Assembly: GCA_025024175.1 (NCBI GenBank) | Contig: QCXZ01000003.1 | Coordinates: 42,928,257-42,992,256 of the forward strand | Source: Rhyzopertha dominica | Taxonomy: Eukaryota; Arthropoda; Insecta; Coleoptera; Bostrichidae | Direction: 5' to 3' | Length of the DNA stretch: 64,000 nucleotides | Shown: piece by piece, positions 4,957 through 42,480 of the stretch | Layout of the letters: each line of letters opens with the position of its first letter | Position numbering within the stretch: position 1 is the stretch's first letter | The notes under the pieces: generated by a model | Told to the model about the DNA's origin: nothing | The model's input: the letters and a program-made list of their open reading frames with translations, nothing else | Database searches by the model: none | Program-made: the position numbers and the translations under genes

Positions 4957-5166
4957 CAAAAAGTTATTAGTCTGACGTTTCGATTACACCTGTAATCTTT
5001 GTCAAAGGCGAAGAACCTCAAAATTTGCATGACACAAGTTCAAATCCTTGATGATTTGTTTATTTACTAAAAAAATTTTGTTTGAACTTGAGTCAGGCAA
5101 ATTTTGAGGTTTTTCGTCTTTGACAAAGATTACAGGTGTAATCGAAATGTCAGAGCAATAATTTTT
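4957..5166. repeat. Imperfect inverted repeat with about 88-bp arms (Penelope-like 3'-end motif)
   Basis: The left arm at about 4957-5044 and the right arm at about 5080-5166 are reverse complements with a few mismatches, separated by about 35 bp. Each arm contains a smaller hairpin (GATTAC/GTAATC) followed by GAAACGTC or GAAATGTC. This arrangement resembles the short-stem-III hammerhead motifs reported from Penelope-like elements, although the CUGANGA box is degenerate here. A short minus ORF at 4845-5030 is only read-through of this repeat. Confidence 0.6.
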
Positions 5167-8600: not shown

Positions 8601-11600
8601 CTGTCGTTGCTGCGAATTAACGAATTTGAAATTTAGTAATGTAGAAGACAGGGGCGCGTATCTGCTAGTATCGATACCAGATACCAAAAATTCACAATAA
8701 TAAAACAAGGATTCTCTATCAGTGCTATGGAGACATGTAGAAAATACATGTCCTTACGTCCAAAAAATTTATCCAACGACAGATTCTTTTTACGATACCA
8801 CCAGTTGGAATCAACACTCTGTCGAAAGTGCAGAAATGCAGAAGCTTATAGCGGCCATTGTATTAGGCGGACCTCAACAACTTTACTGGCTAATAAAGGT
8901 GCTGACCTCATAACAATTAAACGACATGGTGGGTGGAGAAGCTGCACTTATAGCAGAAAGCTATATCGAGGATTTCATTTCTAATAAGCTGGACATTGCA
9001 AGGAAAGTCCAAGATACTGCTGGTACTAGTCACTTCTTGCAAGAAGAGACATCTTCAGATTTAACAAAGATGACAGCTCTAAAAACTTAATGTTAATGGC
9101 AAAAAAGTAAAATTTGATAACATAAATAACTAAATGTTAATTAATAAATAAAATGTGATTAATTTAAGATTATATCTTTCTTTATCTAGTGGTATAAAGT
9201 AATTTCATTATTCCACTAGTGAATAAAATGGTACTTTATACGGTTCTTAAGTGTGGATAAAACTTCAATTATAAAGTGATTATGTATAAAATTATTTTAT
9301 ACCTGTTAGTCTATTTTAAAACAATTACATATTTCTTTATTTACACATTGCTTAACTCCTAACCCTCAATACTACAATTGAAATCTAAAGAATCGCTTTT
9401 GACCTAATATTATATATAGATAGTTGTTATAGTACTTTCATTACGATTACGAGTACCTACAGTAGGTGAGTCTATACGTCTGTACGACCTATTTTATTGT
9501 GTGGATACTTACATTCACAAGACGGTGCATCTGCTGACCATTTCCCTTCTTTGGTACATTTTTGCACTTCCTGCCCATCCAACCAGTAATCGGCTCCACA
9601 CGAGTATTCCACCTCGCTATCCACCGCAGTAGTTCCATTGACCAAAGTATATTTTCCGTTGTCTATATTGGGAGGGGCTCCACAATCTACGTATTTGCAC
9701 GTAGCTGGTTTTCCGGACCACTCTCCTCCTAACCCACAGGAGAGAACGGCTTGACCGAACAGGATGTACCCAGGCTGGCAGGTGTAAGTAGCTGTGTCTC
9801 CTGCCCTACGTCCGGAGGTGGATACCATTCCTCCGTGGATTGAGGGTGGTTCTGGGCACCAGTCGAAAAGACATTGAGGTGGAGAGTCACTCCACAGGCC
9901 ATCTCCACCACAGGTCCTGCTTTCATGGCCGATGAGGGTGTAGTTCTCGTGACACGTGTAAATGGCTTTGGCGCCGAAGGTGGTGCGCTTGTTTTTGAGC
10001 TCAACAGAGCCGTGGTCCAAAGCAGGAAGTTTACCACAGTCAACGTCTAAAAGTAAGTTATAATGTTAAATAGAATAGGGAGGAAAAGAAGTTGCTTAGA
10101 TAGCACCAATAGTGCAAACAGTGGAAGAAAACTTTGATTTAGCCAGTTACACATATATCCAAAATTCTATCAAACTGACACACGTATTTGAAAACTGATT
10201 TCCACTTACTGAAATATGTAGATGAAAAATGCGACACAATTTTCCGGTAAACATTTGTATTCACTTTATTCTAGTTTGCATCATAATTTTTCTTGCAGTA
10301 TATTTTGCTTATTTATGGGTTATATACACACATAGGTGTCTCAGTTAAAAGTAGAATAAAAAACTTTTATTTTTGTTTATCCGCGACGCCTGTATCTTGA
10401 AAACAACAGCTTTTAGATATATTGCAGTTTTACAGTCACCTTACTTATAAATTGTATAGCATTGTTATTTTTTGAGATTTTCCTAATTTTTCTTGGAAAT
10501 GATCTACTTCAAACGTTATAAAAGGTCAGTAGTAGAAAACTAAATAGGTAATATTTTTTTCGGCCTTGAAGGGTAAAAAGTAAAGTTATCTTTCTTCCAT
10601 ACATGCAATTTCTAAATAAATTAAATTTTTTGAGACAACAGCAGCAATAGGAAAAAATAATGAGAGTCATTGAGAAACGAAACAGATGAGTCTTAAATAC
10701 ACATATGACCTTGTTTCTGTCATAAAAGTTGAAGAGTTAAAATTAAACATTTTCTTTTTCCCGTGGCTTTTTCTAAGTGAAATAGACTTATTTTGACACA
10801 CATGCAACATTACTTAAAAAAATAATAAGAAACCTATATGAGACAAATATTATATACATCTCCAATACATACCTATATATGTACGCCTTTAATTCGGTAA
10901 TAGTGTATTATGTTTTTTTTTAGGTAATGGATAGCGCTGCCTAGATGTGCAGGGTGTTTCAAAATTCGACCTCATCAAATTTGGNGCGTGTTCTGAAGTG
11001 AAATTATGACATAAAGTTTATATAAACATAAGTTCCTAAATGCTTCTTTTTGATAAGCAGGGCATTGAAAGAGCAAAATAAATTCATTTAAAAAAGAACT
11101 GTTTTTCAAACTTATTTGGCATCTAAAGTAGGGGTAGCGTTGTGGGGAGGGAGACAGCAAGGCTTTTCTTGAAAAAATGTGCACAGAAAGGGAACTCTTA
11201 TTGCAAGTCTTGAGGCCCAGCCGTTTTCGAGAAAAACGAGAAATTGTGTTTTCAAATACGTCAAAACAAACCGGTTATAAAATTGTGTTTTCCATCAAAA
11301 CTGAAGTTTTTTTTAGTTCACAATGTAAGAGATTATTATGAATTACCACCATAGTGTAAGTAATCTCTGTTTGTTATTTAATAAATCTCAAGCCTCCTAG
11401 GTTTTATGTTGTAATGCAATGCAGAACGGAATTTCTTAATTTAAGCGATAAGGGAAGTAAGTACTTTTTTTGTATATTTTTATTGATCTTATCAGTATAC
11501 AATAGAGTTTAAAAATTTTAAATATAGGTACTATTTTCATTATAAATAACATCCTACGCCTCTCTCAACACCGTCTCTGTTGGTAGATGTAGGGAAGCAA

Positions 11601-26600: not shown

Positions 26601-29600
26601 TAATTTTGTTAATTGTTTTTAATACTCATATAACCAATATTTTTAACAATGTTAGGTAGTTCAACAACAATTTTTAAGTTTCCATCTAAAATTTGTATAG
26701 ATATAAGATTCGTAAGAAATCTACACTTTATCCATTCCTGTAATTTTTTTATCAAATGGTGAATGCAAAGGCAATACCTCTATTTACACTGCATAAAAAG
26801 CTATACGCCTAGTAAATACGTTAAAATAAACTAGTCCTTATTCACTCTGTGTTTGATTCAAACGGAGAACGACAAAACGTAATCTAGTGCAAATAACGAG
26901 TTAAATGGATGATAATTCAGTGGTGCTTTCATAAGAAATGTTCGTCTTACAAGCACTTATAGTTTTCCCATGCAAACAACTAATTAATGGACGTAATTGC
27001 ACAGCTTACTACTTATCTAAAAAATAAAGATTGCTCTTGTAAATTAGGAAAACGCAAAGATATCTTTTAAACAAAGATATTTTACACGATCAATTATTAT
27101 TTTCGGGAAAAATATCTGCAAGAAGGTACGGGCAAAAAGCAAGCTGTCAAATACCGTGCTGTCAGTAAAAATTAAAAAAAAACATCGATGTCAGTACCTG
27201 GCGATTAGAAATTTGTGGATTATAATAACTGCACATGATCCAAACAAGGTTTTTAATAAAAAAAAGGCAGCATTTTGAACATTCTAAAGGAGAACAGAAT
27301 TTACTTTCATATGAAAGGCTGAGTCCATGTTGCAACAGGACAAACTGCTGTACCATGAAACCAGCATTATCGATGGTATGTGGTGCAACAGTTGAAGTGT
27401 TTATTTTCGAAATATTATGTGCCCTGCATTTGAGAAGAAGTGTGATTTATTCGATAATTTTAATCGTATTGAAAATCAAAGTTGTGCTTTGTGTTAATGA
27501 TCACTTTTGTTTATAGGGCCTGTTGAAAACATGATAATTCCTGGGTATGCACAAAAAGTACGCATTTATTCTTGTCCTATTAAACTTAAATCTATAGTTT
27601 TTGAAAATTCCGAACTATAAATACGTATTCAATAAATACATTATACCACAAAACACCAGCAGGTGTATGTAATAGCACACTGGCGATATAACTAATGATA
27701 AAGAGTGTTTTATAGTCTATAAGGCAAGCTTTTTAGCCCTTCAGTAAATTCCTATCTCAATCTTTATATTTTGATCCGAAACGGTTTTGTAGCCTTTGTA
27801 TACAAAAAAGTTTAAAAGTTTTAGTGATTGCAAGTTTCTTAATAGGTACCCTATCATTCGTCAGTCCCCCTATCTCTTAGTACTGTTATGCCATAGCGGG
27901 TATATATGTCCTAGGCATATTGCAAAAGCAGGCGTTTCATGAAACGCCTAGACTTTTCGAAATTGACTAAATGTAAAATGAAGCAATAAGCAGCATGATT
28001 TGACGTTGCGCCTGATACATTTAAGCGTTTTCTCATACGCCCAGGCGTTTTCAAAAAGCGTATGCGAATTTCGGCGTATTTTAAAACAATGCTACTCTCA
28101 AGCACTGTTTTACAATGAGCCGACTTTAATCAGGCGTTTTATAAAACAAGCGCAAACATAATTCTGACAATTTATCGAAAATTTATCTGTTGACGTATTT
28201 ATTTCAACACACGAAAATACATTATGTGAATGCAAAACAGGAAATAGACGTTTCCAAAAAAATGGCGTCATTCTGATAATGAAAAATTTGGGTATCTGTT
28301 TAGGTACCTACCTATATTTAAACACAATAAAAATACATACACAGGTACTTATATGTAAAAAGAGAAAATATTTTCCTAAACAAACGCAAAATTTTATTCT
28401 TAAAAACGCGATCAAAAATTTAGGAAGCCGTTTACATAAGTTTCCATTTAAACATACGATATAAACACGTAAGTATAAAACAGAATATAAACTATCTATG
28501 TCTCAAAAACATGCAAAACGTAAGGATGAGAACTTCTTGAAGATTTAATACTTGGCTGTCAACATTTTCTGGGGTAAACATAGTCACAGTTGAAAGCGGT
28601 ACGTCATTAATTTCAGTAAAATCAGGTACATCGAGTTCTTCATTCTCTGGTGGAATGACGTTTGTGTCTATAGCATTATGTGGTGCGCCAATTACTTTTT
28701 CTAAATCTTCTTCTGTAATCATATCTTTAATAGAATCTTTCGGCAACGGAGAATAGCATTGTTTTAAAATATGCCGAAACACGCATAAGCGTTTTGTAAA
28801 ACGCCTAGACGTATGGCAAAACGCCTAAATGTATCAGGCACAACGTCAAATCATGCTGCTTATTGCTTCATTTTACATTTAGCCCAGTCATTTTCGAAGA
28901 GCCTAGGAATTTCATAAAACGCCTACTTTTGCAATATGCCTACGACATTACATTCCATGTGTGTATAATATTAAAGTAGACATAGGAATTTTTATTAATT
29001 AATATATAAAGTCAAGTCTGTTACAAAATTAACGTCTGTGCTTTTAAGAGAAAAATCTCGTCTTCCGCAAAAAAAATTATCATTTTATAAAATGGAACGG
29101 TTATTAATGACGAGACAAATAGCAGAGAATGACAATCTTTGTAGATTAGATTAGATTTCTACAATATCTTTTTTTTAATTACTGATTGGTAACACAAAAA
29201 ACTAATATCATATATTGCTCAATAAGCTTCTATGGTTATGATTGAGTTTAAGATAACAGGAATTTATTTTTAGACGGAAATTTAAATCAAACTTATAGTT
29301 TAATACTTATTAAACGCTTAAAAGATAATAACAGCCTAACACAATTTTTTTCTGTGAAGCTTGACGTTTCCTGTATTATACTTTTTAACAATGTATCTTC
29401 AAATCAGAACCTAACCTAACCTTATGTTTGACGCAAACATAAGCTTTAACGAAATTACTTGGTTATAACACGAACAGTACCAATATATACAGATATTTCA
29501 TGTTTCCACCACGGATTTTTTAAATAATATATTCTATATAAAACGCTGGTACTCTTTAACAATATATATCTCCAATTTATTAAAAAAAATAAAGCCGTGG

Positions 29601-32600: not shown

Positions 32601-35600
32601 ACAGATTCGTGGTTTTAGGTGTGTATAGCCTACATTTTCCCTTTTAGAATGAAGCAGTATGGTTGAGGTGGATGTGAGCATTGGACTGCTATCTGGATGA
32701 AAACTTGCAATAAAGAACTCCCAAGTGTTGCAATTGCCGAAACTGTCTTGCCATGAAGAAATCGAAAATCGACGTTTCGAGAAGTTCATAGAAAATTCAG
32801 TAAAATTCATAGCAGGGGGAAGTAGAATGTTTGACTTTTCGAGAATGTTGTAGATTATTCTGGAATATTCAATAGAAGACGAGGAAATCATCATGTGGGG
32901 CAGTTTGCTAGAACTTAAAGATGGTTCTATTAGGTCGGAGAACGATTTAGAAATTTTGATCGAAGATTACAGAACCAATGGAAAAATCGACGTTTCTAGA
33001 AGGTCATAGAAGGTTGTGGAAAATTCATCAGCAGACTAAAGAAACTGTGAGTGTGGTATATTGTCGAAGTTGTCGAAAATCGACGTATCGAGAACGAACA
33101 TTCATTGGAAGACCAAAGAACACCCATTGTAGAAGCTGTCTCACGGTGGAGATGTCAAAAATCGACGTTTCGAGCAGGTCACAAAACATTCTAGAATATT
33201 CAATAAAAGACGAAAGAATTCCCAGGTGTGGCACATTGTTGTAGCCGTCTAGCGGCGGAGATGGCGAAAATCGACGTTTCGAGAAGGTCATAGAAGAACA
33301 TTTTATATAACATTCAATAAAAGACGAAATAATTCCCAGGTGTGGCACATTGTTGTAACCGCCTCGCGGTGAAAATGTCGAAAATCGATGTTTCAAAAAG
33401 GCCATAGAACATTCTAGGACATTTGATAAAAGACGAAATAACTCCCAAGAGTGGCACATTGTCCAAACCATCTCGCGGTTGAGACGTTGAAAGGTCATTT
33501 TAAGGTTACCGCGATGTATACATAATATACAGCTTTATGAAGTCGTCAACAATTGCATAGAAGGTTCAACAGTCTTACATATTCTAATTGACCGAGCGAA
33601 GCGAGTCTACACCAGCTAGTCAGAAATAATTTACATCAAGCAACCTTTTGACAGGTTTGAAAACAAGTAGTCGGTATCTGGAAGGCAGTTAATTTTTCAG
33701 ACTGCTATAGATAAATTAAAATTCTCTGTTAAAGTTTGTGTATGTACTTTGCAAAACTTACCTATAGTTCCTGGAAACCATGCACATAACGGATTTCTTT
33801 GCAAATCGGAACTGCTATTTCCTACTCGAATTTCCAAATCCTGTAAGGGTTGATGTCCACAGCACCCCCTCGTCGTAACCCTAACCACTTTAACGGCGTA
33901 CGGTTTCAGTAAATCTACCTGCCACCAAGGGCTTGCTTCTTTTTGTGTCTCGGAACATCTTCTTCCGTCATGTTCAGTGCTTTTTTCGCCATCATTAGCG
34001 TTTCCTGCCCCGCCACCTCTAACTGCAGTTGATTGATTGGCAGGTTTTCTGCGACAAATAGTAATAAATTAATTAAAAATCCTAAAATGACGCAGGTCAA
34101 AATTTATGAAGAAGAAGATTGTTAAATATAAATGATTCATACAACGCGGGCGTCGTTTATTTCTGAATTTTCGTGCCGCCTTTTCGTAACTGCTGCCAAG
34201 CTACAACAAGCACAGCGGTAGTACTGAAGGTTGCAGATCAAGTTACAGTCACGAAATTGATGGCTGTGGAAGCTTTGTGCAGTGCAGCTAACACTACTAC
34301 AACTTGGTTTGTGAATTTTACCATTGCGGCAGGCTAAAAACATCTTTCAGTCCATCATAGTAAAATTATTTAACAGGCTTACTGTAGCCACAACCTCACA
34401 GATACGATACATAACCTAAAAGTTATACGAAACCGTATCACCCCACACCCCGAAATGTGAGCTTTCTGCAACCTTAAATTGATTATTTCACAAAATACTA
34501 CAGAATATGTCAAAAATACACACTCCCACACGTTTTCTCATATTAAAATATATCAAATAATTCGGCAATCGACAGATGACAAGTACACGTCAAGGCAATA
34601 TCTCCTGAGAGGCGGTAAATTGATTTAATCGATAATTTTCATAAACGCCCTGGATGTATGAATCCAAGAGCGGATCCAGGGGGGGGGGTCATGGGGGGTC
34701 ATGACCCCCCCCCTGGGCTTGCGCTGGGTATAGTTCGACCACTAATAATTTATCTAATGTAATTGATATATTTTATAAAATAATTACTTTCTATAATGGC
34801 GAGCGCATACATGCACGAAGAGCAGGCACTATTAACTGTTTTCAATAAAAAAAAACGTCGCAATTTGATTGGATGTCAACCCTTAGTATCTTACCTGTGA
34901 CGATTTAATTTTATTATCATTGATTGTTTTCACCATTACTCAACGAATTAATTTCTTTAATGAGATAAAAACAACACGTGATAATTTCATTTGTGCATTC
35001 AATGAATTCCTGAGTTTTTGAACTGGACTGCGTATTCAGAGAAACATAGCGACTGAAGTGGATTGAAGTTACAATTCGTTTCTCGAGAAGATAAAAAACG
35101 AAAAATTAATTTTGCTATTTGATTAAAATTATTTCAACTTATAACAATAAAATACTATTTCTTTTTCAATTAGATGTTTTTAATAAATTGTCGCCCGTCC
35201 TGACTAGGTGACCCCCTGACCCCCTGATCTGAAAGCTGGATCCGCCCTTGTATGAATCATTATAGAAATCCTGCATAAATAGGTATATACAAACTATTTT
35301 ATCAAGTACCTTGGAAACATTATTCCCCATAAATATCGCGCCAATAAGAAAAATTTTGGTATACAGTAAAAATAAAACATTTTGTGCTCGGAAAATTCGT
35401 ATCGGTCGTATCACATCGCTATACAACAGATTTTGAGCAAGTCTTTATTTATTCGCACATGATGTTTCTAATAAAATGTTGTTTTCCGGGCTGGTTCCCA
35501 CGTTGGTTATTAGACCTTGACGTTTCGACACTCATGTCGGTGTCTTCCTCAGAAGTAGCTCTGAAACTGTTTCAGAGCTACTTCTGAGGAAGACACCGAC

Positions 35601-36751
35601 ATGAGTGTCGAAACGTCAAGGTCTAATAACCAACGTGGGAACCAGCCCGGAAAACAACATGTCATCGACAACAACCACGGAAGCCTTCAAACCAAAAAGA
35701 TGTTTCTAATACTTTCATCTGACGTTATTAGCGAAAAATTGTGTTTAGCTTGGAAGAAGAACGGTTTAATTTAACACAGAAAACCTTTACTTGCAAGTTA
35801 TCTGAAATTCAAGGTATGTCCCATCGTAAACTCTGAAAATGAAACGATCTAGGAAGGACAGTTTTCTAGATTCGCAACAAACTTTTCTGGATTCATGGCA
35901 AAACTAGGTAGTTCTTCAATACAGGATGGTGCTATTACGAGACAGCAATATTGTTCAATAGTTATGTTACCAGGAAATAAATTGTCTTGCATAAACGACT
36001 CTCCACGGCTGTACCTATTAGCAGATCGTGAACAGTTGAGTAGGGCTTGTATAAAATGTATTCAACAATGTTTTTGAAAATATATAATGATAATCTTTAT
36101 ACAATCGAGGAAGAAGTGGCTACTTATCAGTTACACATAGTGTTCCATGTTTACGTGAACAGTGTAGTATCTATTGCAGGAAAACTAAATGTAGAGTTGT
36201 ATAAATAATAGTAAGGTAATGCAACCCAAACATAATATCGTTGTGAGGAAATTGTAACTTAGTTTTCGGGTGAGGTTGTAAAAATATTGAACTATGTGTT
36301 TCATTGCTCATACTTAAAAATTTTCTAGGGAACTTGATACCACACATAAACATATCTAAAAACTCTTCAGTTTTAATATGTTCAACTACTTTTAAGAAAT
36401 TTTACAAAACACAATTCCACGTAATGTTCATACTAATATATAAAGGCTTAGGTACAATAGTGATATAATATTAATGTAACTGCAATTAATTTATTAGGCG
36501 TCGACCTGTAAATGAAACACTTTCTGTTTTGTATTTTAATATTATTGTGTTTTACCTGAACGCAATATTTGTTCCGCAGAACGGCAGCTCCCCTATCCAT
36601 TGTCCAGTAGGAGAGCAAGAGATCTGGGTATCACCAAAGGTCTCATAACCTTCATCGCAAATGTAGGTAGCAGTTGTACCTGGTGCTAAGGTGGAAGAAC
36701 TCAAGGTCACCCTAGCATTCACTGGTACTGCCGGATGACCACATCGTATTT
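5420..36751 (-). CDS. fw: furrowed-like selectin-type receptor (CCP-FTP-CTLD-CCP x7), partial at both ends, 10 exons
   Basis: Ten minus-strand exons (36556-36751, 33762-34048, 31475-31597, 21753-22043, 16599-16748, 12940-13116, 9513-10046, 6055-6228, 5794-5973, 5420-5659) sum to 2352 nt, or 784 codons, with GT..AG borders and continuous reading phase throughout. Domain order along the partial protein is CCP (residues 4-59), FTP/fucolectin (about 60-202), C-type lectin (about 203-349), then seven CCPs (354-784). This order matches the insect furrowed family, a selectin-like transmembrane protein that in Drosophila affects eye and bristle development and planar cell polarity. Every CCP has the C..C..C-W-C pattern. 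No signal peptide, transmembrane segment or stop codon is present, because the first and last exons were not found. The last exon ends mid-codon at a good donor, so the coding sequence continues to lower coordinates. The gene identity is inferred from architecture, not from an alignment. Confidence 0.88.
5794..5973 (-). CDS. fw: fw exon: CCP/sushi module 7
   Basis: This exon encodes residues 645-704. It has IDCGKVPPLLYGN, LVYSCVKNYKLNG, RVCQENKQWSD and SPKCE. A NET sequon is visible. The acceptor is TTTTTCAG and the donor GAAG|GTATAT, which is weaker than the other GTAAG donors in this gene but still a legitimate GT site and phase 1. Confidence 0.9.
6055..6228 (-). CDS. fw: fw exon: CCP/sushi module 6
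   Basis: This exon encodes residues 587-644. It starts with the split codon (T|TG) and ITCEEPEVPTG, continues through STIEYHCEVGYILRG and ICTQEGEWSGSTPTCE, and ends at GAAT|GTAAGT. The acceptor is GATTTTAG. It is separated by only 81 bp from the next exon, the shortest intron in the gene. Confidence 0.92.
8014..8039. repeat. Perfect 11-bp inverted repeat with 4-bp loop upstream of the Crypton remnant
   Basis: CCATGATACTA at 8014-8024 and its exact reverse complement at 8029-8039 flank the loop AGGC. It lies 118 bp upstream of the recombinase ATG. The role is unknown. Confidence 0.7.
8157..9090 (+). pseudogene. Degenerate Crypton-type tyrosine recombinase gene, with a retained intron
   Basis: Fragments in consecutive order match the insect Crypton-like tyrosine recombinase pattern. 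An N-terminal part starts at ATG 8157 (LLPAKSKEHYEKVLSECNEL). The linker follows (LTAYR..., then KKAAVLEKAHVEEFLRRAC). After a GT..AG intron at about 8517-8573 comes GVSGACRCCEL, the first catalytic Arg block. Then come LRPKN, the GHCIRRTSTTLLANKGAD block with the H-x-x-R pair, HGGW, and ESYIEDFISNKLDIA with the expected nucleophile Tyr. The ORF is broken by a stop after KNSQ near 8698 and by frameshifts near 8420 and 8945, so it is not functional as it stands. It lies in the fw intron between the exons at 9513 and 6228, opposite in orientation to the host gene. Confidence 0.75.
9513..10046 (-). CDS. fw: fw exon: CCP/sushi modules 3, 4 and 5 fused in one exon
   Basis: This is the longest exon (534 nt, residues 409-586) and carries three complete CCPs. 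Module 3 runs from VDCGKLP to SPPQC, module 4 from DWCPEPP to KPATC, and module 5 from VDCGAPP to DAPSCE. Each has GxWS before the final Cys. Module 4 contains HGGMVSTSGRRAGDTATYTC. Sequons NYT and NGT are present. Borders are TTTTAG|AC and GAAT|GTAAGT. Because three modules share one exon, introns between them were probably lost or never present, whereas the neighbouring modules are one per exon. An alternative minus frame (9729-10043) is a shadow. Confidence 0.94.
10950..11909. mobile_element. Non-autonomous foldback/MITE-like element with CAGGGTGTTTC ends
   Basis: The left end CAGGGTGTTTCAAAA (from 10950) and right end TTTTGAAACACCCTG (to 11909) are inverted. Homology of the arms continues inward: CTTATTGCAAGTCTT with CGTTTTCGAGAAAA on the left matches the complement of TTTTCTCGAAAACG with AGCAATAAGAATAC on the right. 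The total is 960 bp with no transposase. Such ends are common in Tc1/mariner-like families, but no clear TA duplication is visible. One N is present at 10985. It lies in the intron between the 12940 and 10046 exons. Confidence 0.6.
11987..12130. mobile_element. Short MITE-like palindromic element with GGTTGC ends
   Basis: Left GGTTGCACAA...GTTGCCTAGCAACACCA and right complement GGTTGCTCAA...GTTGCTATAGCAACACCA form an imperfect inverted repeat over the whole 144 bp. It is GC-richer than its surroundings, and no ORF is present. Confidence 0.6.
12169..12220 (-). repeat. Penelope-like 3'-end motif, degenerate
   Basis: Read on the minus strand, CTTTGAAAATGGCC...TGAAACGTCAG resembles the conserved 3' segment of Penelope-like elements, which carry a hammerhead core. 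The CUGANGA box is not intact. This is a fragment only, with no RT nearby. Confidence 0.35.
12940..13116 (-). CDS. fw: fw exon: CCP/sushi module 2, directly after the C-type lectin domain
   Basis: This exon encodes residues 350-408. The split codon gives Ser, so the lectin end reads CQH-SPSSCGSPD. The module shows VIQYTCPEGHMLVG, then RTCG, and FWSGSAPSC at the end, the normal CCP cysteine and Trp pattern. Two N-glycosylation sequons (NTT, NRT) are visible. The acceptor follows CTTTATAG and the donor is AAAT|GTAAGT. One exon equals one 1-1-phase CCP module. Confidence 0.92.
13117..16598 (-). other. fw intron with a decayed DDE transposase fragment
   Basis: This intron separates the lectin domain from CCP 2. 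It holds a degenerate transposase at about 15400-15735. Nothing else coding was seen. An ORF at 14711-14920 has low-complexity Phe-rich content and no recognisable family. Confidence 0.5.
15400..15735 (+). pseudogene. IS630/Tc1-type DDE transposase fragment
   Basis: Broken frames give KIIQEKIEQIHTRKKDM, then IDELCSIHGHLVIRRSPCLP, then TEHVWAIAKKLP and LARQRMKCGTKLCETV. This resembles the C-terminal part of the insect DDE_3 transposases (pattern 'ELA..HGH.V.RLPPYH..LNPIE..W...K'). Stops and frameshifts make it non-functional. The same family is represented at 46440-46880. Confidence 0.5.
16599..16748 (-). CDS. fw: fw exon: C-terminal part of the C-type lectin domain with the Ca2+/sugar-binding motifs
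   Basis: This exon encodes residues 300-349. It contains the long-loop motif Q312-P313-N314, the E319..N321-C322 segment, the W333-N334-D335 motif of the second Ca2+-ligand cluster, C338, and the closing HWICQH with C347. In the CTLD family, EPN usually marks mannose-type and QPD galactose-type sites. QPN is intermediate, so Ca2+ binding is plausible but sugar specificity cannot be called. The acceptor is TTCAG and the donor CACT|GTAAGT, both phase 1. Confidence 0.92.
16749..21752 (-). other. fw intron inside the C-type lectin domain
   Basis: This 5-kb intron is AT-rich. Apart from the dispersed repeat at 19296-19915 and a short hairpin near 18570 (GGTTATTC...GAATAACC), I see no gene. Minus ORFs at 18681-18914, 19991-20182 and 20776-20973 have no recognisable family. 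Confidence 0.5.
19296..19915 (-). repeat. Dispersed repeat, copy 2 (inverted relative to 783-1523)
   Basis: This is the minus-strand copy of the repeat at 783-1523, in the fw intron upstream of the 16599-16748 exon. It carries the complement of the same blocks, for example ATCTTCTAAACAGTTTGC and TAATCACATACTAAAA. It is somewhat shorter than copy 1. No coding potential was seen. Confidence 0.7.
21753..22043 (-). CDS. fw: fw exon: N-terminal two thirds of the C-type lectin domain
   Basis: This exon encodes residues 203-299. It opens with EFSVDRCAPRNAP and a TCYEF start strand. The helical SFAEARSYCQSHSGDLVHA segment corresponds to the conserved 'W/F..A...C...G..L' pattern of CTLDs. It then has VWIGVQ (the WIG motif) and RTWKWVNG at the donor. 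Borders are CAG|AG.. and AACG|GTAAGA, both phase 1. The local GC content is clearly above the surrounding intron. An ORF on the other strand over the same bases (21717-22019) is an antisense shadow. Confidence 0.93.
22130..23330. repeat. Diverged minisatellite, about 125-150-bp units
   Basis: Recurring blocks 'TTCACCCCTTAAGGGTGGAATTTTC', in split variants, appear near 22260, 22660, 22790, 22905, 23030, 23150 and 23232. They alternate with 'CTTCAAAAATGACGGA' and 'TTTCTAATCAAAAGCC' variants. The array opens with ACTAGCTGTTGCCCG, a motif frequent at the start of such insect repeats, and ends in a CAGTCAGT run near 23315. The ORF at 22289-22486 is incidental. Confidence 0.7.
23790..24135. repeat. 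Second minisatellite, about 120-bp unit, roughly three copies
   Basis: Units start with CAATTGTG(C/T)TTTAATTT near 23838 and 23958 and a diverged CACTTGTGCTTCA near 24085. Each also contains GTGGCTAGAC or GTGGTCAAC, and 'AATCGAAGCACTAAA'. The period is about 120-125 bp. Confidence 0.65.
26530..26605 (+). ncRNA. Hammerhead-ribozyme-like repeat, copy 2 (core mutated)
   Basis: This unit shares CCTAAAC, CGACGAG, GAAAC and TTCCGTCT with the copy at 2930-3010. Stem II is strong (GTTTTT with AAAAAC, 26568-26573 and 26578-26583) and differs in sequence from copy 1 while keeping its shape. GAAA lies at 26584-26587 and GTC at 26595-26597. The first two core bases read GC in place of CT, so self-cleavage is probably lost. 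Confidence 0.45.
27906..28948. mobile_element. 1.04-kb element with about 150-170-bp imperfect terminal inverted repeats
   Basis: The left arm (from ATGTCCTAGGCATATTGC) and the complement of the right arm (from ATGTCGTAGGCATATTGC) align over roughly 150-170 bp, including ATGAAGCAATAAGCAGCATG. Both arms contain several short GGCGTTTT/AAAACGCC hairpin repeats. A minus-strand 96-codon ORF (28492-28782) lies inside. It is acidic (ITEEDLEKVIG, PPENEELDVPDF) and unrecognised. TA-rich flanks would allow a TA target duplication, but this is not certain. It sits in the 9.4-kb fw intron. The superfamily cannot be assigned. Confidence 0.65.
30975..31259 (-). CDS. Intronless 94-codon ORF nested in an fw intron; unknown protein, possibly winged-helix-like
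   Basis: A basic 94-residue ORF starts at the ATG at 31259 (context CAAG-ATG-TC). An upstream in-frame ATG at 31340 would add 27 less protein-like residues. The sequence looks like a real small protein: it is Lys-rich, with alternating helices, and contains SIVKNTAIVVNILKKEG, then NTSDIKRQIYKKL, then a VLNVSLKLGLLKRRGNYYLV segment. The last segment resembles the recognition helix and wing of H15/winged-helix folds. It ends with an NIAKNAEKLAGRM tail. I do not recognise the family and assign no function. It lies on the same strand as fw, 215 bp below the end of the 31475-31597 exon. Its base composition is less AT-rich than its flanks. It may be a nested gene or a retrocopy. Confidence 0.45.
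   Translation of the reverse strand: MSYIKNAASIVKNTAIVVNILKKEGIANTSDIKRQIYKKLAGSYFDIVPDLPKVLNVSLKLGLLKRRGNYYLVKKEPQNWINIAKNAEKLAGRM
31475..31597 (-). CDS. fw: fw exon: C-terminal part of the FTP/fucolectin domain
   Basis: This 123-nt exon encodes residues 162-202. The first codon is split (G|AC, Asp). The exon carries TFTCARPLIGQYVFLQL and ends with LSLCEVEVFTTD, the canonical last strand of FTP and F5/8-type domains (Cys-Glu-Val-Glu-Val). The acceptor follows a CTTTATAG site and the donor is GATG|GTAAGT. The first G of the next codon is carried over to give Glu. The exon is too short to be found by ORF length alone and is supported by the motif and by phase agreement on both sides. The next intron, 9.4 kb, is the longest in the window. 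Confidence 0.9.
32740..33500. repeat. Tandem repeat array (about 110-bp unit) with heat-shock-element-like motifs
   Basis: The block AAATCGACGTTTCGAG, with variants, recurs near 32765, 32983, 33075, 33156, 33265 and 33378. It is followed by 'AAGGTCATAGAA', 'ATTCAATAAAAGACGA', 'CCCAGGTGTGGCACATTG' and 'CTCGCGGTGGAGATG'. The spacing is 81-113 bp, except for one 218-bp step. Perfect TTCnnGAAnnTTC triplets occur at 32858-32870 and 33189-33201, and GAAnnTTC at 33407-33414. The minus ORFs 32523-32894 and 33028-33498 are translations of this array, not genes. Confidence 0.75.
33762..34048 (-). CDS. fw: fw exon: N-terminal two thirds of the FTP/fucolectin (F5/8 type C-like) domain
   Basis: This exon encodes residues 66-161. 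Recognisable FTP (fucolectin-tachylectin-4-pentraxin) features are KPANQST near the start, the HDGRRCSET segment with C97, PWWQVDLL with W107-W108, and a VTTRGCCGHQ stretch with the paired cysteines usual in this family, followed by LEIRVGNSS. The acceptor is a TTTGTCGCAG-type site and the donor is ATAG|GTAAG. An overlapping frame that starts at an internal ATG (34100-33915) is open by chance and lacks all of these motifs. The family binds fucose-containing glycans in some members. Ligand binding here is inference. Confidence 0.9.
34665..35250. mobile_element. Non-autonomous hAT element (MITE) with 8-bp target duplication
   Basis: The ends are CAAGAGCGGATCCAG (left) and the complement CAAGGGCGGATCCAG (right), of the hAT CA..GGCGG type. 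The exact 8-bp direct repeat TATGAATC flanks it at 34657-34664 and 35251-35258. The 586-bp interior has no ORF. A G/C homopolymer hairpin with GGGTCATG and CATGACCCC lies near 34680-34710. It is in the intron between the first CCP exon and the FTP exon. Confidence 0.85.
35474..35698. mobile_element. 225-bp insertion, mostly a perfect palindrome (Penelope-like 3' ends head to head), 13-bp target duplication
   Basis: Positions 35476-35567 and 35569-35660 are exact reverse complements (92-bp arms around a single T). Each arm, read outward from the centre, contains CTGAGGA, a GACAC...GTGTC stem and GAAACGTC. This is a hammerhead core with the minimal stem III known from Penelope-like elements. 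A 38-bp tail follows on the right. The direct repeat GATGTTTCTAATA occurs at 35461-35473 and 35699-35711, flanking the unit exactly. The overlapping ORF at 35384-35587 is a shadow. Confidence 0.85.
36556..36751 (-). CDS. fw: fw exon: first CCP/sushi module, N-terminal to the fucolectin domain
   Basis: This exon encodes residues 1-65 of the partial protein. The CCP module has C4, C32, C46, W52 and C59, with a typical YICDEGYE stretch and a GQWIG motif before the last Cys. A polypyrimidine/AG acceptor precedes the exon, which starts in phase 1. The donor follows TTC AG, giving the only phase-2 junction in the chain. The partial codon AG joins the A that opens the next exon to make Arg, so the sequence reads CGTNIAF-R-KPANQS, which is the expected start of an FTP domain. 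This is the most 5' exon found. The signal-peptide exon must lie above 36751, and no convincing candidate was seen. Confidence 0.88.
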
Positions 36752-41005: not shown

Positions 41006-42480
41006 AATGTCGTACCTAAAATACATAAAGGTGATTGTCCTATTAGACCTGTTGTTTGTTATATAAAACCTCCAAATTATAAATTAATCCTACGTGAAGT
41101 TTTAAATTTTGACAACTCTTTTCCTATTAAGAATAGAGTAGACTTGACCGATAAACTTAAAATTTTTAAAATACCATCTGATTCTTTCCTTGTTTTCTTT
41201 GGCGTGAACGATTTATTTCTATCGATTCCTTCACATGACTGTAAATATTTTAAATAACCTACTACTTCAAAATTTTAATTTATCATTATTACATATAAAT
41301 AATTTGGCATCATTAACAAAATTTACATTAGATCAAAATTTTTTTCTGTTTCAATAATAAATATTTTATATAAAAGTCAGGTTTAGCTCAGTTCTTCCCT
41401 TAGTCCACTTTTAGCGGGAATTTTCATGAATATTTTAGAAATATTAAAAAATACTGTCTTCTCAACTCATGTTATTTTTTGGTACCGTTATGTAGATGAT
41501 GTTTTATATCTTTCCCCTGGAAATCAACAAAATTTAAATAATTTTCAAACATTTATAAATTCGTTATATAATTCTATATATTTTGGTTATGAAACAGAGG
41601 TTAACAATAAAATTTCCTTTTTAGATTTATTAATTCTTTTCCTAACCTTTCTTTTGAAATTTTCAGTAAACCAACTTGTATGTACAGACGAGCAGACGAC
41701 ATTATCCCTTATTCTTCTGTGCACCCTCATACCATAAATTAGCCGTCTCTCATTCTCTTTTTCACGAAGTTTTTAAAACTCCTCTTTCTTCATAATAACG
41801 GTTTTCCAAATTACTTAACAGAAAAATTGTGCTATAAATACCTGACGACATTAAATTTTTCTTTTAACACCATCACATGTGATAAAAATGTTAAAATTTG
41901 GGATCCCCTTACCTTTCTAAATTATTTTCATCTAATGACATAAATATTGCGTTTTCTACTGTAGGCAGTGTCTGCTCCCTTTTTGTCCACAATAAAAATA
42001 AAATTTCAGTTTTAAATCATTTAGGTGTATATAGCTTTGCATGTAATGACTATAATTGAGTTTATATTAGACAAACGGGAAAATCATTTCTTGTTAGAGG
42101 AAATAAACATCTATAACAATTTAATAAGTATAAAGATAGAGACATTGTAACTTCAAATTCTTCGTTGGCGGATCATTTATTATCATTTAAACATACTTCC
42201 ACTTTGGACAAAGACAAAGTTACAATTTATGTGAAAAATAATCAAAAAGTTTTAGAGAAGTACAAAATTTTAAATGACCAAAATTTTTTATTTGAAAGTT
42301 AATTTTTATGTTGCAGGTTTGAAAGTTGTTTTCCATTTTTATTCAGGATTGCTTGTTTAGATTTTTAGATTCATTTTATTAATTTGACAACGTCATAATA
42401 TTTTATTTTCAAATTTGGTAACTGACGATGGCTTATGAGCCTAAAGCGCTTTACTTGTTAATAAATATCGTGGATTAAAC
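41006..42480 (+). mobile_element. Degenerate Penelope-like retroelement with RT and GIY-YIG endonuclease remnants
   Basis: In order on the plus strand are several diagnostic blocks. VVPKIHKGDCPIRPVV (from 41009) is the Penelope-type RT0/RT1 block. NDLFLSIPSHD corresponds to RT 'DV.SLFTNIP'. LSPLLAGIFMN leads into FWYRYVDDVLYL (41426 onward), the catalytic Y-x-DD box. NNKISFLDLLIL follows. A GIY-YIG segment reads GVYSFACNDYN, a stop, then VYIRQTGKSFLVRGNKHL, and the last frame ends at 42302. The 3' region near 42424 reads CTGACGATGGCTTATGAGCC then TAAAGCGC, a hammerhead core with GAAA changed to TAAA. At least three frames and internal stops show it is dead. The 5' limit is uncertain: ORFs at 40389-40661 and 40774-41001 may or may not belong to it. 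Confidence 0.8.

What the first reader, a model, noticed from the sequence alone, without database searches (positions are those of the whole stretch)
35461..35711. 225-bp insertion that is a 92-bp-arm perfect palindrome with opposing hammerhead motifs and a 13-bp target duplication
Seen directly: exact arms around a single base, exact flanking direct repeats, and the ordered hammerhead boxes CTGAGGA, stem II, GAAAC and GTC in each arm on opposite strands. Known: Penelope-like elements carry hammerhead cores with minimal stem III and often insert as complex or inverted copies. A perfect palindrome this long implies a very recent event or gene conversion, and it may be a minimal mobile ribozyme unit rather than a random truncation.
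Basis: partly seen in the sequence, partly recalled or inferred. Interest (0 to 1): 0.75.

Follow-up and report, generated by a model that had tools for sequence, protein, structure and literature searches.

The report
Mirror-image Penelope retrotransposon footprint
A short, almost perfectly mirror-symmetric DNA insertion in an animal genome is most likely the aborted product of a Penelope-type jumping gene that copied the same short start of its RNA from both sides of the cut, so the many similar scars in this genome record how this poorly understood class of jumping genes inserts itself.

Summary
In detail: 92-bp exact arms around one base, hammerhead-like boxes on both strands, an exact 13-bp target duplication. 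It is repeated: the 34-nt core occurs 1156 times exactly in this 479-Mb genome, and 61 near-perfect palindromic centres exist.

It is probably not a self-replicating palindromic ribozyme unit. It looks like a promoterless, ORF-less insertion of a Penelope-like element (PLE); longer copies encode its reverse transcriptase and GIY-YIG block. The arms run from two internal start sites (about +97, here +93; and about +127-130, the 'tail') to the predicted transcription start, which is the palindrome's centre. Of 96 arms sampled by their end on one contig, 42 stop at -3..+5, 20 read through and 34 stop inside the leader; 1 stops at +49..+53, the hammerhead site. Of 79 two-armed insertions, 78 have exactly one tailed and one tailless end; the exception also does if its outer arms are used. 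Direct joins carry microhomology.

Best mechanism: both target strands prime cDNA inside the leader, both cDNAs run off the RNA's 5' end, and their ends anneal. The parts are published; the combined reading seems new and is testable.

The parts
35461..35473 (.). left copy of the 13-bp target-site duplication
   Evidence: exact direct repeat
35474..35475 (.). two A's between the duplication and the left arm, not matched to the leader
   Evidence: sequence; left arm aligns to +93 only
35476..35568 (-). left arm: antisense copy of the leader from +93 to +1, without tail
   Evidence: exact complement of the right arm; alignment to the leader reference (locus L001)
35568..35568 (.). palindrome centre, at the predicted transcription start
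   Evidence: TATAAATA at -30 and TTCAGTTTC in longer copies
35569..35698 (+). right arm: sense copy of the leader from +2 to about +130, with tail
35519..35552 (-). hammerhead-like boxes, left arm
35584..35617 (+). hammerhead-like boxes, right arm (+17..+50)
35659..35661 (+). ATG at +92, apparent start of the element's ORF (reads MSSTTTTEAFKP to the end of the insert)
   Evidence: sequence; position; not shown to be used
35665..35698 (+). tail: extension between the two reverse-transcription start sites, present at one end only
35699..35711 (.). right copy of the target-site duplication
   Evidence: exact direct repeat

Best explanation
It is a 'strong-stop' insertion of a Penelope-like retrotransposon. 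The element's protein cuts both target strands about 13 bp apart. Each exposed 3' end primes reverse transcription inside the 5' leader of the element's RNA, one at about +97 and the other at about +127-130 (which leaves the tail). Both cDNAs are antisense copies of the same leader and run off the RNA's 5' end at the transcription start. The two cDNA ends anneal by a few bases and are filled in, giving an inverted insertion whose centre is the transcription start. If one cDNA stops early the palindrome is lopsided; if the RNA reads through tandem units the insertion is longer and carries ORF sequence. Shown here: anatomy, one-tail pattern, end peak, shared variants, microhomology. Inferred: the transcription start itself, use of a single RNA for both arms, the cutting and annealing steps.
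For: Arm ends peak at the predicted start: 42 of 96 at -3..+5 against 7.4 expected if the 76 ends between -9 and +73 were even. TATAAATA starts at -30, the preceding ORF's stop is at -11. 78 of 79 two-armed insertions have one tailed and one tailless end, and the outer arms of the remaining one, L103, do too. Direct repeats of 12-15 bp in 56 of 79. Direct joins of a start-reaching arm to a truncated arm: 15, mean overlap 2.8 nt against 0.74 in the null, 0 of 20000 resamples as large. Variants on both arms and within-copy likeness. Published in vitro: a PLE protein cuts and extends both strands, starts at two adjacent internal RNA sites that define the tail, and does not need hammerhead activity (PMC11167929).
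Against: No RNA data: the transcription start is predicted from recalled promoter motifs. 34 of 96 arms stop inside the leader. The in vitro study saw no difference in start site between strands, so it does not predict one tail per insertion. 14 of 29 joins with one start-reaching arm carry inserts of 1-21 nt instead of a direct join. 23 of 79 insertions lack a 12-15 bp repeat by my simple search. Pfam did not call GIY-YIG on our pieces.
Confidence: 0.72

Rival explanations
1. Fold-back (self-priming): one template or cDNA folds on itself at the leader's end and is copied back, as proposed for junction palindromes in rotifer PLEs on an antisense template (PMC3846280).
For: Junction palindromes are consistent with it and the authors preferred it. 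Some joins here carry short repeated or inverted pieces of the start region.
Against: Fold-back should give equal arms; 29 of 71 analysed insertions have one arm at the start and one truncated, and 10 have neither there. It does not predict that one end has the tail and the other stops near +97. A 1-nt hairpin loop is too tight for simple snap-back.
Confidence: 0.08
2. The palindromic unit itself replicates as a minimal mobile ribozyme element.
For: 61 near-perfect centres; 32 of the 50 listed share one 29-nt centre (counted by eye). Some lopsided junctions recur at different loci.
Against: No promoter in the unit; T57A on both arms in 7 copies and never on one; junctions differ; recurrent junctions and the central base occur in both polarities relative to the tail.
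Confidence: 0.08
3. The peak of arm ends is a reverse-transcription stop or RNA break, not the transcription start; the rest of the mechanism holds.
For: Not excluded without RNA data. A hairpin at +3..+22 is predicted.
Against: The enzyme would meet that hairpin at about +22, yet ends lie at its far side. The peak fits the TATA spacing. Hammerhead cleavage is not the break: 1 of 96 ends at +49..+53.
Confidence: 0.1
4. Assembly artefact.
For: Long palindromes are hard to assemble.
Against: 61 centres at separate places; of the 30 loci cut out, 26 show a direct repeat of 12 nt or more, two of these 30 being one duplicated locus; the tail is on one side only.
Confidence: 0.02

Closest known systems
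Poseidon PLE of Anolis carolinensis (PAc), PMC11167929 (parts 1 and 2 of 4 and term passages seen)
   Same: Two adjacent internal start sites that define the tail, both target strands extended, AC-rich start region, hammerhead motif in the leader, no need for hammerhead activity. An 836-aa Anolis carolinensis protein (not shown to be PAc) is 46% identical to the 481-aa stretch of L103.
   Different: There the start sites did not differ between strands; here each genomic insertion has one of each. Leader run-off at a transcription start and solo palindromes are not described in what I saw.
Penelope elements of the rotifer Adineta vaga, PMC3846280 (passages and Discussion seen)
   Same: Inverted pLTR, 31-bp tail at one inverted pLTR, TATA plus initiator, target duplications, palindromes at the inverted junction.
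   Different: Target duplications of 8-10 bp in the passages seen; palindromes put down to self-priming on an antisense template. Here arms are often unequal and end at the predicted start.
Metazoan retrozymes, PMC7229834 (passages seen)
   Same: Short, non-autonomous, hammerhead-bearing repeats.
   Different: Those are tandem direct repeats expressed as circular RNAs; this insertion is inverted with a tail at one end.
LINE-1 twin priming (recalled; only a search listing seen)
   Same: Two target ends prime on one RNA and give an inversion.
   Different: Starts at the poly(A) and an internal site, not at two fixed sites in a 5' leader.

Membership tests
Penelope-like element | PLE-type reverse transcriptase in longer copies | tested here: met
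   RVT_1 9.6e-12 on a 481-aa stretch of L103; 779 related proteins, 120 listed, insect and Anolis proteins among them. No tree was built.
Penelope-like element | GIY-YIG endonuclease | tested here: met
   Alignment shows GVYxIPC...YIG...GR...R..EH...SA.AEH shared with relatives, two of which (P0057, P0118) carry precomputed PF01541. Against: Pfam did not call it on our pieces, even at E<=10 for one of them.
Penelope-like element | inverted terminal copy, optional 30-40 bp tail, target duplication | tested here: met
Type I hammerhead ribozyme | conserved core boxes in order | tested here: met
   (with an extra A before stem II)
Type I hammerhead ribozyme | match to a hammerhead covariance model and fold | tested here: not met
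   no Rfam hammerhead match at E<=10; minimum-energy fold differs
Type I hammerhead ribozyme | self-cleavage | not testable with these tools
   arm ends show no cleavage-site peak, which tests template use, not catalysis
Retrozyme | tandem direct hammerhead repeats | tested here: not met
   the insert and the analysed copies are inverted (the script looked for inverted pairs only)
Retrozyme | circular RNA | not testable with these tools
   no RNA data
Foldback or MITE DNA transposon | symmetric inverted termini | tested here: not met
   one end has the tail, the other not, in 78 of 79 by script and in the last by its outer arms

The most novel reading that the evidence does not exclude
A general two-start rule for Penelope-like elements: a protein dimer on one RNA primes one target strand at the upstream start and the other at the tail start, so every insertion is inverted with exactly one tail; capped monomer RNA gives dead strong-stop palindromes, and only read-through RNA from tandem units gives active copies. 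This would explain the inverted pLTR, the tail, the tandem habit and the junction palindromes together.
Probability: 0.45. Interest if true: 0.75.

Novelty: new variant of a known kind. Interest (0 to 1): 0.6.

Why it matters
How Penelope-like elements insert is open: a 2013 paper proposed self-priming on an antisense template, and a 2024 in vitro study found internal starts on both strands without settling later steps. A genome rich in short footprints lets such models be compared by sequence and gives sharp predictions: the transcript starts at the palindrome centre, and each insertion has one tail. It also suggests a reason for the tandem habit of these elements: in this family the promoter of one unit lies in the last codons of the unit before it.

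Tried and rejected
Rfam miRNA matches on the palindrome (for example MIR6201, 65.2 bits against a gathering score of 69, E 1.5e-14) were set aside as hairpin resemblance; none reached its gathering score. A hammerhead-cut template was looked for and not seen. Whether the tailless cDNA reaches further: 28 insertions against 12, with 32 within 5 nt (p 0.017); weak, so not leaned on. A second PLE clade was started (150 of 3934 candidates scored; one 1.5-kb stretch, L151). That stretch looks inverted by eye but my scan found no palindrome with arms of 10 nt and a spacer up to 12, and I did not go on, so generality is untested. Solved structures gave only weak matches to bacterial reverse transcriptases (best E 1.6e-4).

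Sampling limits: L001-L030 were the best matches to the window unit; L031-L110 are the 80 contig-C1 sites with an exact 34-nt core; L111-L150 are further C1 sites with exact +74..+97. Older copies are under-represented. Dropped before counts: L027, L047 and L049 (same duplicated locus as L028), L063 (cut by the fetch), L108 and L078 (same places as L002 and L020). In one search, L108 and L078 were still in: 55 rows, 53 distinct, neither with a variant. In one search, L041, L044, L064, L073, L089, L098, L103 and L120 were left out (71 of 79 used); the same except L044 (72 of 79). One search counted 106 arms; one search leaves out loci beyond the listed places (96). Three of the first 100 places were not fetched and one lies in L049.

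Full report
The observation. The window holds a 225-bp insert at 35474-35698 between exact 13-bp repeats. Its arms, 35476-35567 and 35569-35660, are exact reverse complements around T35568; no other palindrome of this type in the window has arms above 14 nt. Hammerhead-like boxes lie at 35584-35617 (+) and 35519-35552 (-), with none in 100 shuffles.

It is repeated. In the window's own genome (479 Mb, 138 contigs) the 34-nt core occurs 1156 times exactly, 0 for the reversed control; +74..+97 occurs 1414 times; +3..+22 occurs 1334 times, and a pattern running 17 bases further upstream 203 times (a longer exact pattern also loses diverged copies). Palindromic centres with exact 13-nt flanks and a spacer of at most 12 nt number 61; of the 50 listed, 32 share the centre GAAAC[T/A]GTTTC (counted by eye). 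The similarity search scored 40 of 1071 candidates. Of the 30 loci cut out, 26 show a direct repeat of 12 nt or more around the insert, two of the 30 being one duplicated locus.

What the pieces are. Longer copies show what lies upstream of the palindrome centre: TATAAATA from -30, TTCAGTTTC around +1, and an ORF stop codon at -11, so the promoter lies inside the last codons of the preceding unit (the promoter motifs are recalled). I number from this predicted start. The boxes run +17..+50 with the recalled cleavage point after +50; an ATG lies at +92; tailless ends lie mostly at +97..+99 and tailed ends mostly at +127..+130. The window copy's tailless arm ends at +93. Longer copies encode a reverse transcriptase (RVT_1, 9.6e-12). 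The search found 779 related proteins, 120 listed, among them insect proteins and an 836-aa Anolis carolinensis protein at 46% identity. The GIY-YIG block is plain in an alignment, although Pfam did not call it on our pieces. The source is therefore a Penelope-like element, closest in kind to Penelope/Poseidon by resemblance; I built no tree.

Where arms end. I used the first 100 listed places of +74..+97, all on contig C1; 97 lie in fetched loci, one of them in a duplicate left out, so 96 arms were counted. 42 end at -3..+5, against 7.4 expected if the 76 ends between -9 and +73 were even; 20 run past -10; 34 end at +7..+73. One ends at +49..+53 and five at +46..+55, where hammerhead-cut RNA would stop. 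The usual template was thus not cut there. In vitro work on an Anolis PLE also found that ribozyme mutants did not change insertion (PMC11167929).

One tail per insertion. Of 79 two-armed insertions, 41 have the tail on the left only, 37 on the right only, and 1 scored as two tails. That one, L103, was scored on a nested 33-nt fragment; its outer arms end at +98 and +128. Direct repeats of 12-15 bp are found at 56 of 79. The in vitro study saw no difference in start site between strands, so this strict pairing goes beyond it.

How the arms are joined. Of 71 insertions analysed, 32 have both arms at the start, 29 have one there and one truncated, 10 have neither. The 32 are inflated by loci chosen for likeness to the window unit: from L031 on it is 7 of 50. 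Of the 29, 15 are direct joins with a mean overlap of 2.8 nt against 0.74 in the null (0 of 20000 resamples as large), and 14 carry inserts of 1-21 nt. Some joins recur at different loci (+11, +13, +17, +43), as expected where short matches favour annealing. The single T or A at the centre would follow if two ends ...CTG paired with one T-T mismatch; both polarities relative to the tail occur, 17 and 5 (a set biased by selection). That detail is inference.

One source per insertion. In 55 two-armed copies (53 distinct), 23 variants are on both arms and 134 on one. T57A is on both arms in 7 copies and never on one. Within a copy, arms differ at 1.78 of 73 sites, between copies at 2.48; none of 5000 re-pairings was as low (51 copies; the same holds for the 23 copies from L031 on). 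Both arms were thus copied from one RNA or one source locus and then decayed apart. The identical arms of the window copy mean a recent insertion.

Mechanism. Both target strands prime internally on the leader at two start sites; both cDNAs run to the RNA 5' end; the ends anneal and are filled in. The product has neither promoter nor ORF and should be dead on arrival. Full copies would need read-through RNA so that a downstream leader is used. L103, about one unit long, ends within its upstream leader at about +98; this is one case and unexplained.

Against what is known. PMC3846280 describes the inverted pLTR, the 31-bp tail, TATA plus initiator and junction palindromes in rotifers, and favours self-priming on an antisense template (passages and Discussion seen). 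PMC11167929 gives internal starts in vitro (parts 1 and 2 of 4 and passages seen). I saw no paper that joins these into leader run-off at the transcription start in searches of an open-licence library that lacks most subscription journals; novelty is therefore provisional. The main hammerhead-in-PLE paper is not held.

Limits. No RNA data, one genome, exact-match sampling, a predicted transcription start, and no result yet from a second PLE clade.

Noticed in passing
window 41387-41737 (+): Remnant of a second PLE clade's reverse transcriptase (RVT_1 2.9e-4, below the curated cut-off); relatives with open frames up to 874 aa lie elsewhere in this genome.
   Followed up: partly
window 8640-8984 (+): Tyrosine-recombinase-like fragment (Phage_integrase 5.4e-4, below the curated cut-off), possibly a Crypton or DIRS remnant.
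   Followed up: no
window 5325-34068 (-): Exons with Sushi, C-type lectin and F5/8 type C domains on the minus strand, resembling the insect gene furrowed (name recalled); the insert lies upstream of the F5/8 C exon.
   Followed up: no
window 32733-33492: About 109-bp imperfect tandem repeats holding ACGTTTCGA; one spot on the minus strand at 33031 has CTGATGA...GAAACGTC, no Rfam match.
   Followed up: no
window 27906-28099 / 28749-28948 and 4959-5044 / 5081-5166: Other inverted repeats: arms of about 190 bp in three pieces (87-91%) about 650 bp apart, and an 86-nt hairpin at 91%.
   Followed up: no
L103:2739-2771: A nearly unit-length PLE insertion whose long cDNA ends in the upstream leader at about +98, next to a start site; might hint at a block there or at a circular template.
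   Followed up: no
L028 and L027 (also L047, L049): Two copies of the palindrome 135 kb apart on C1 with the same flanks: a duplicated genomic segment.
   Followed up: no
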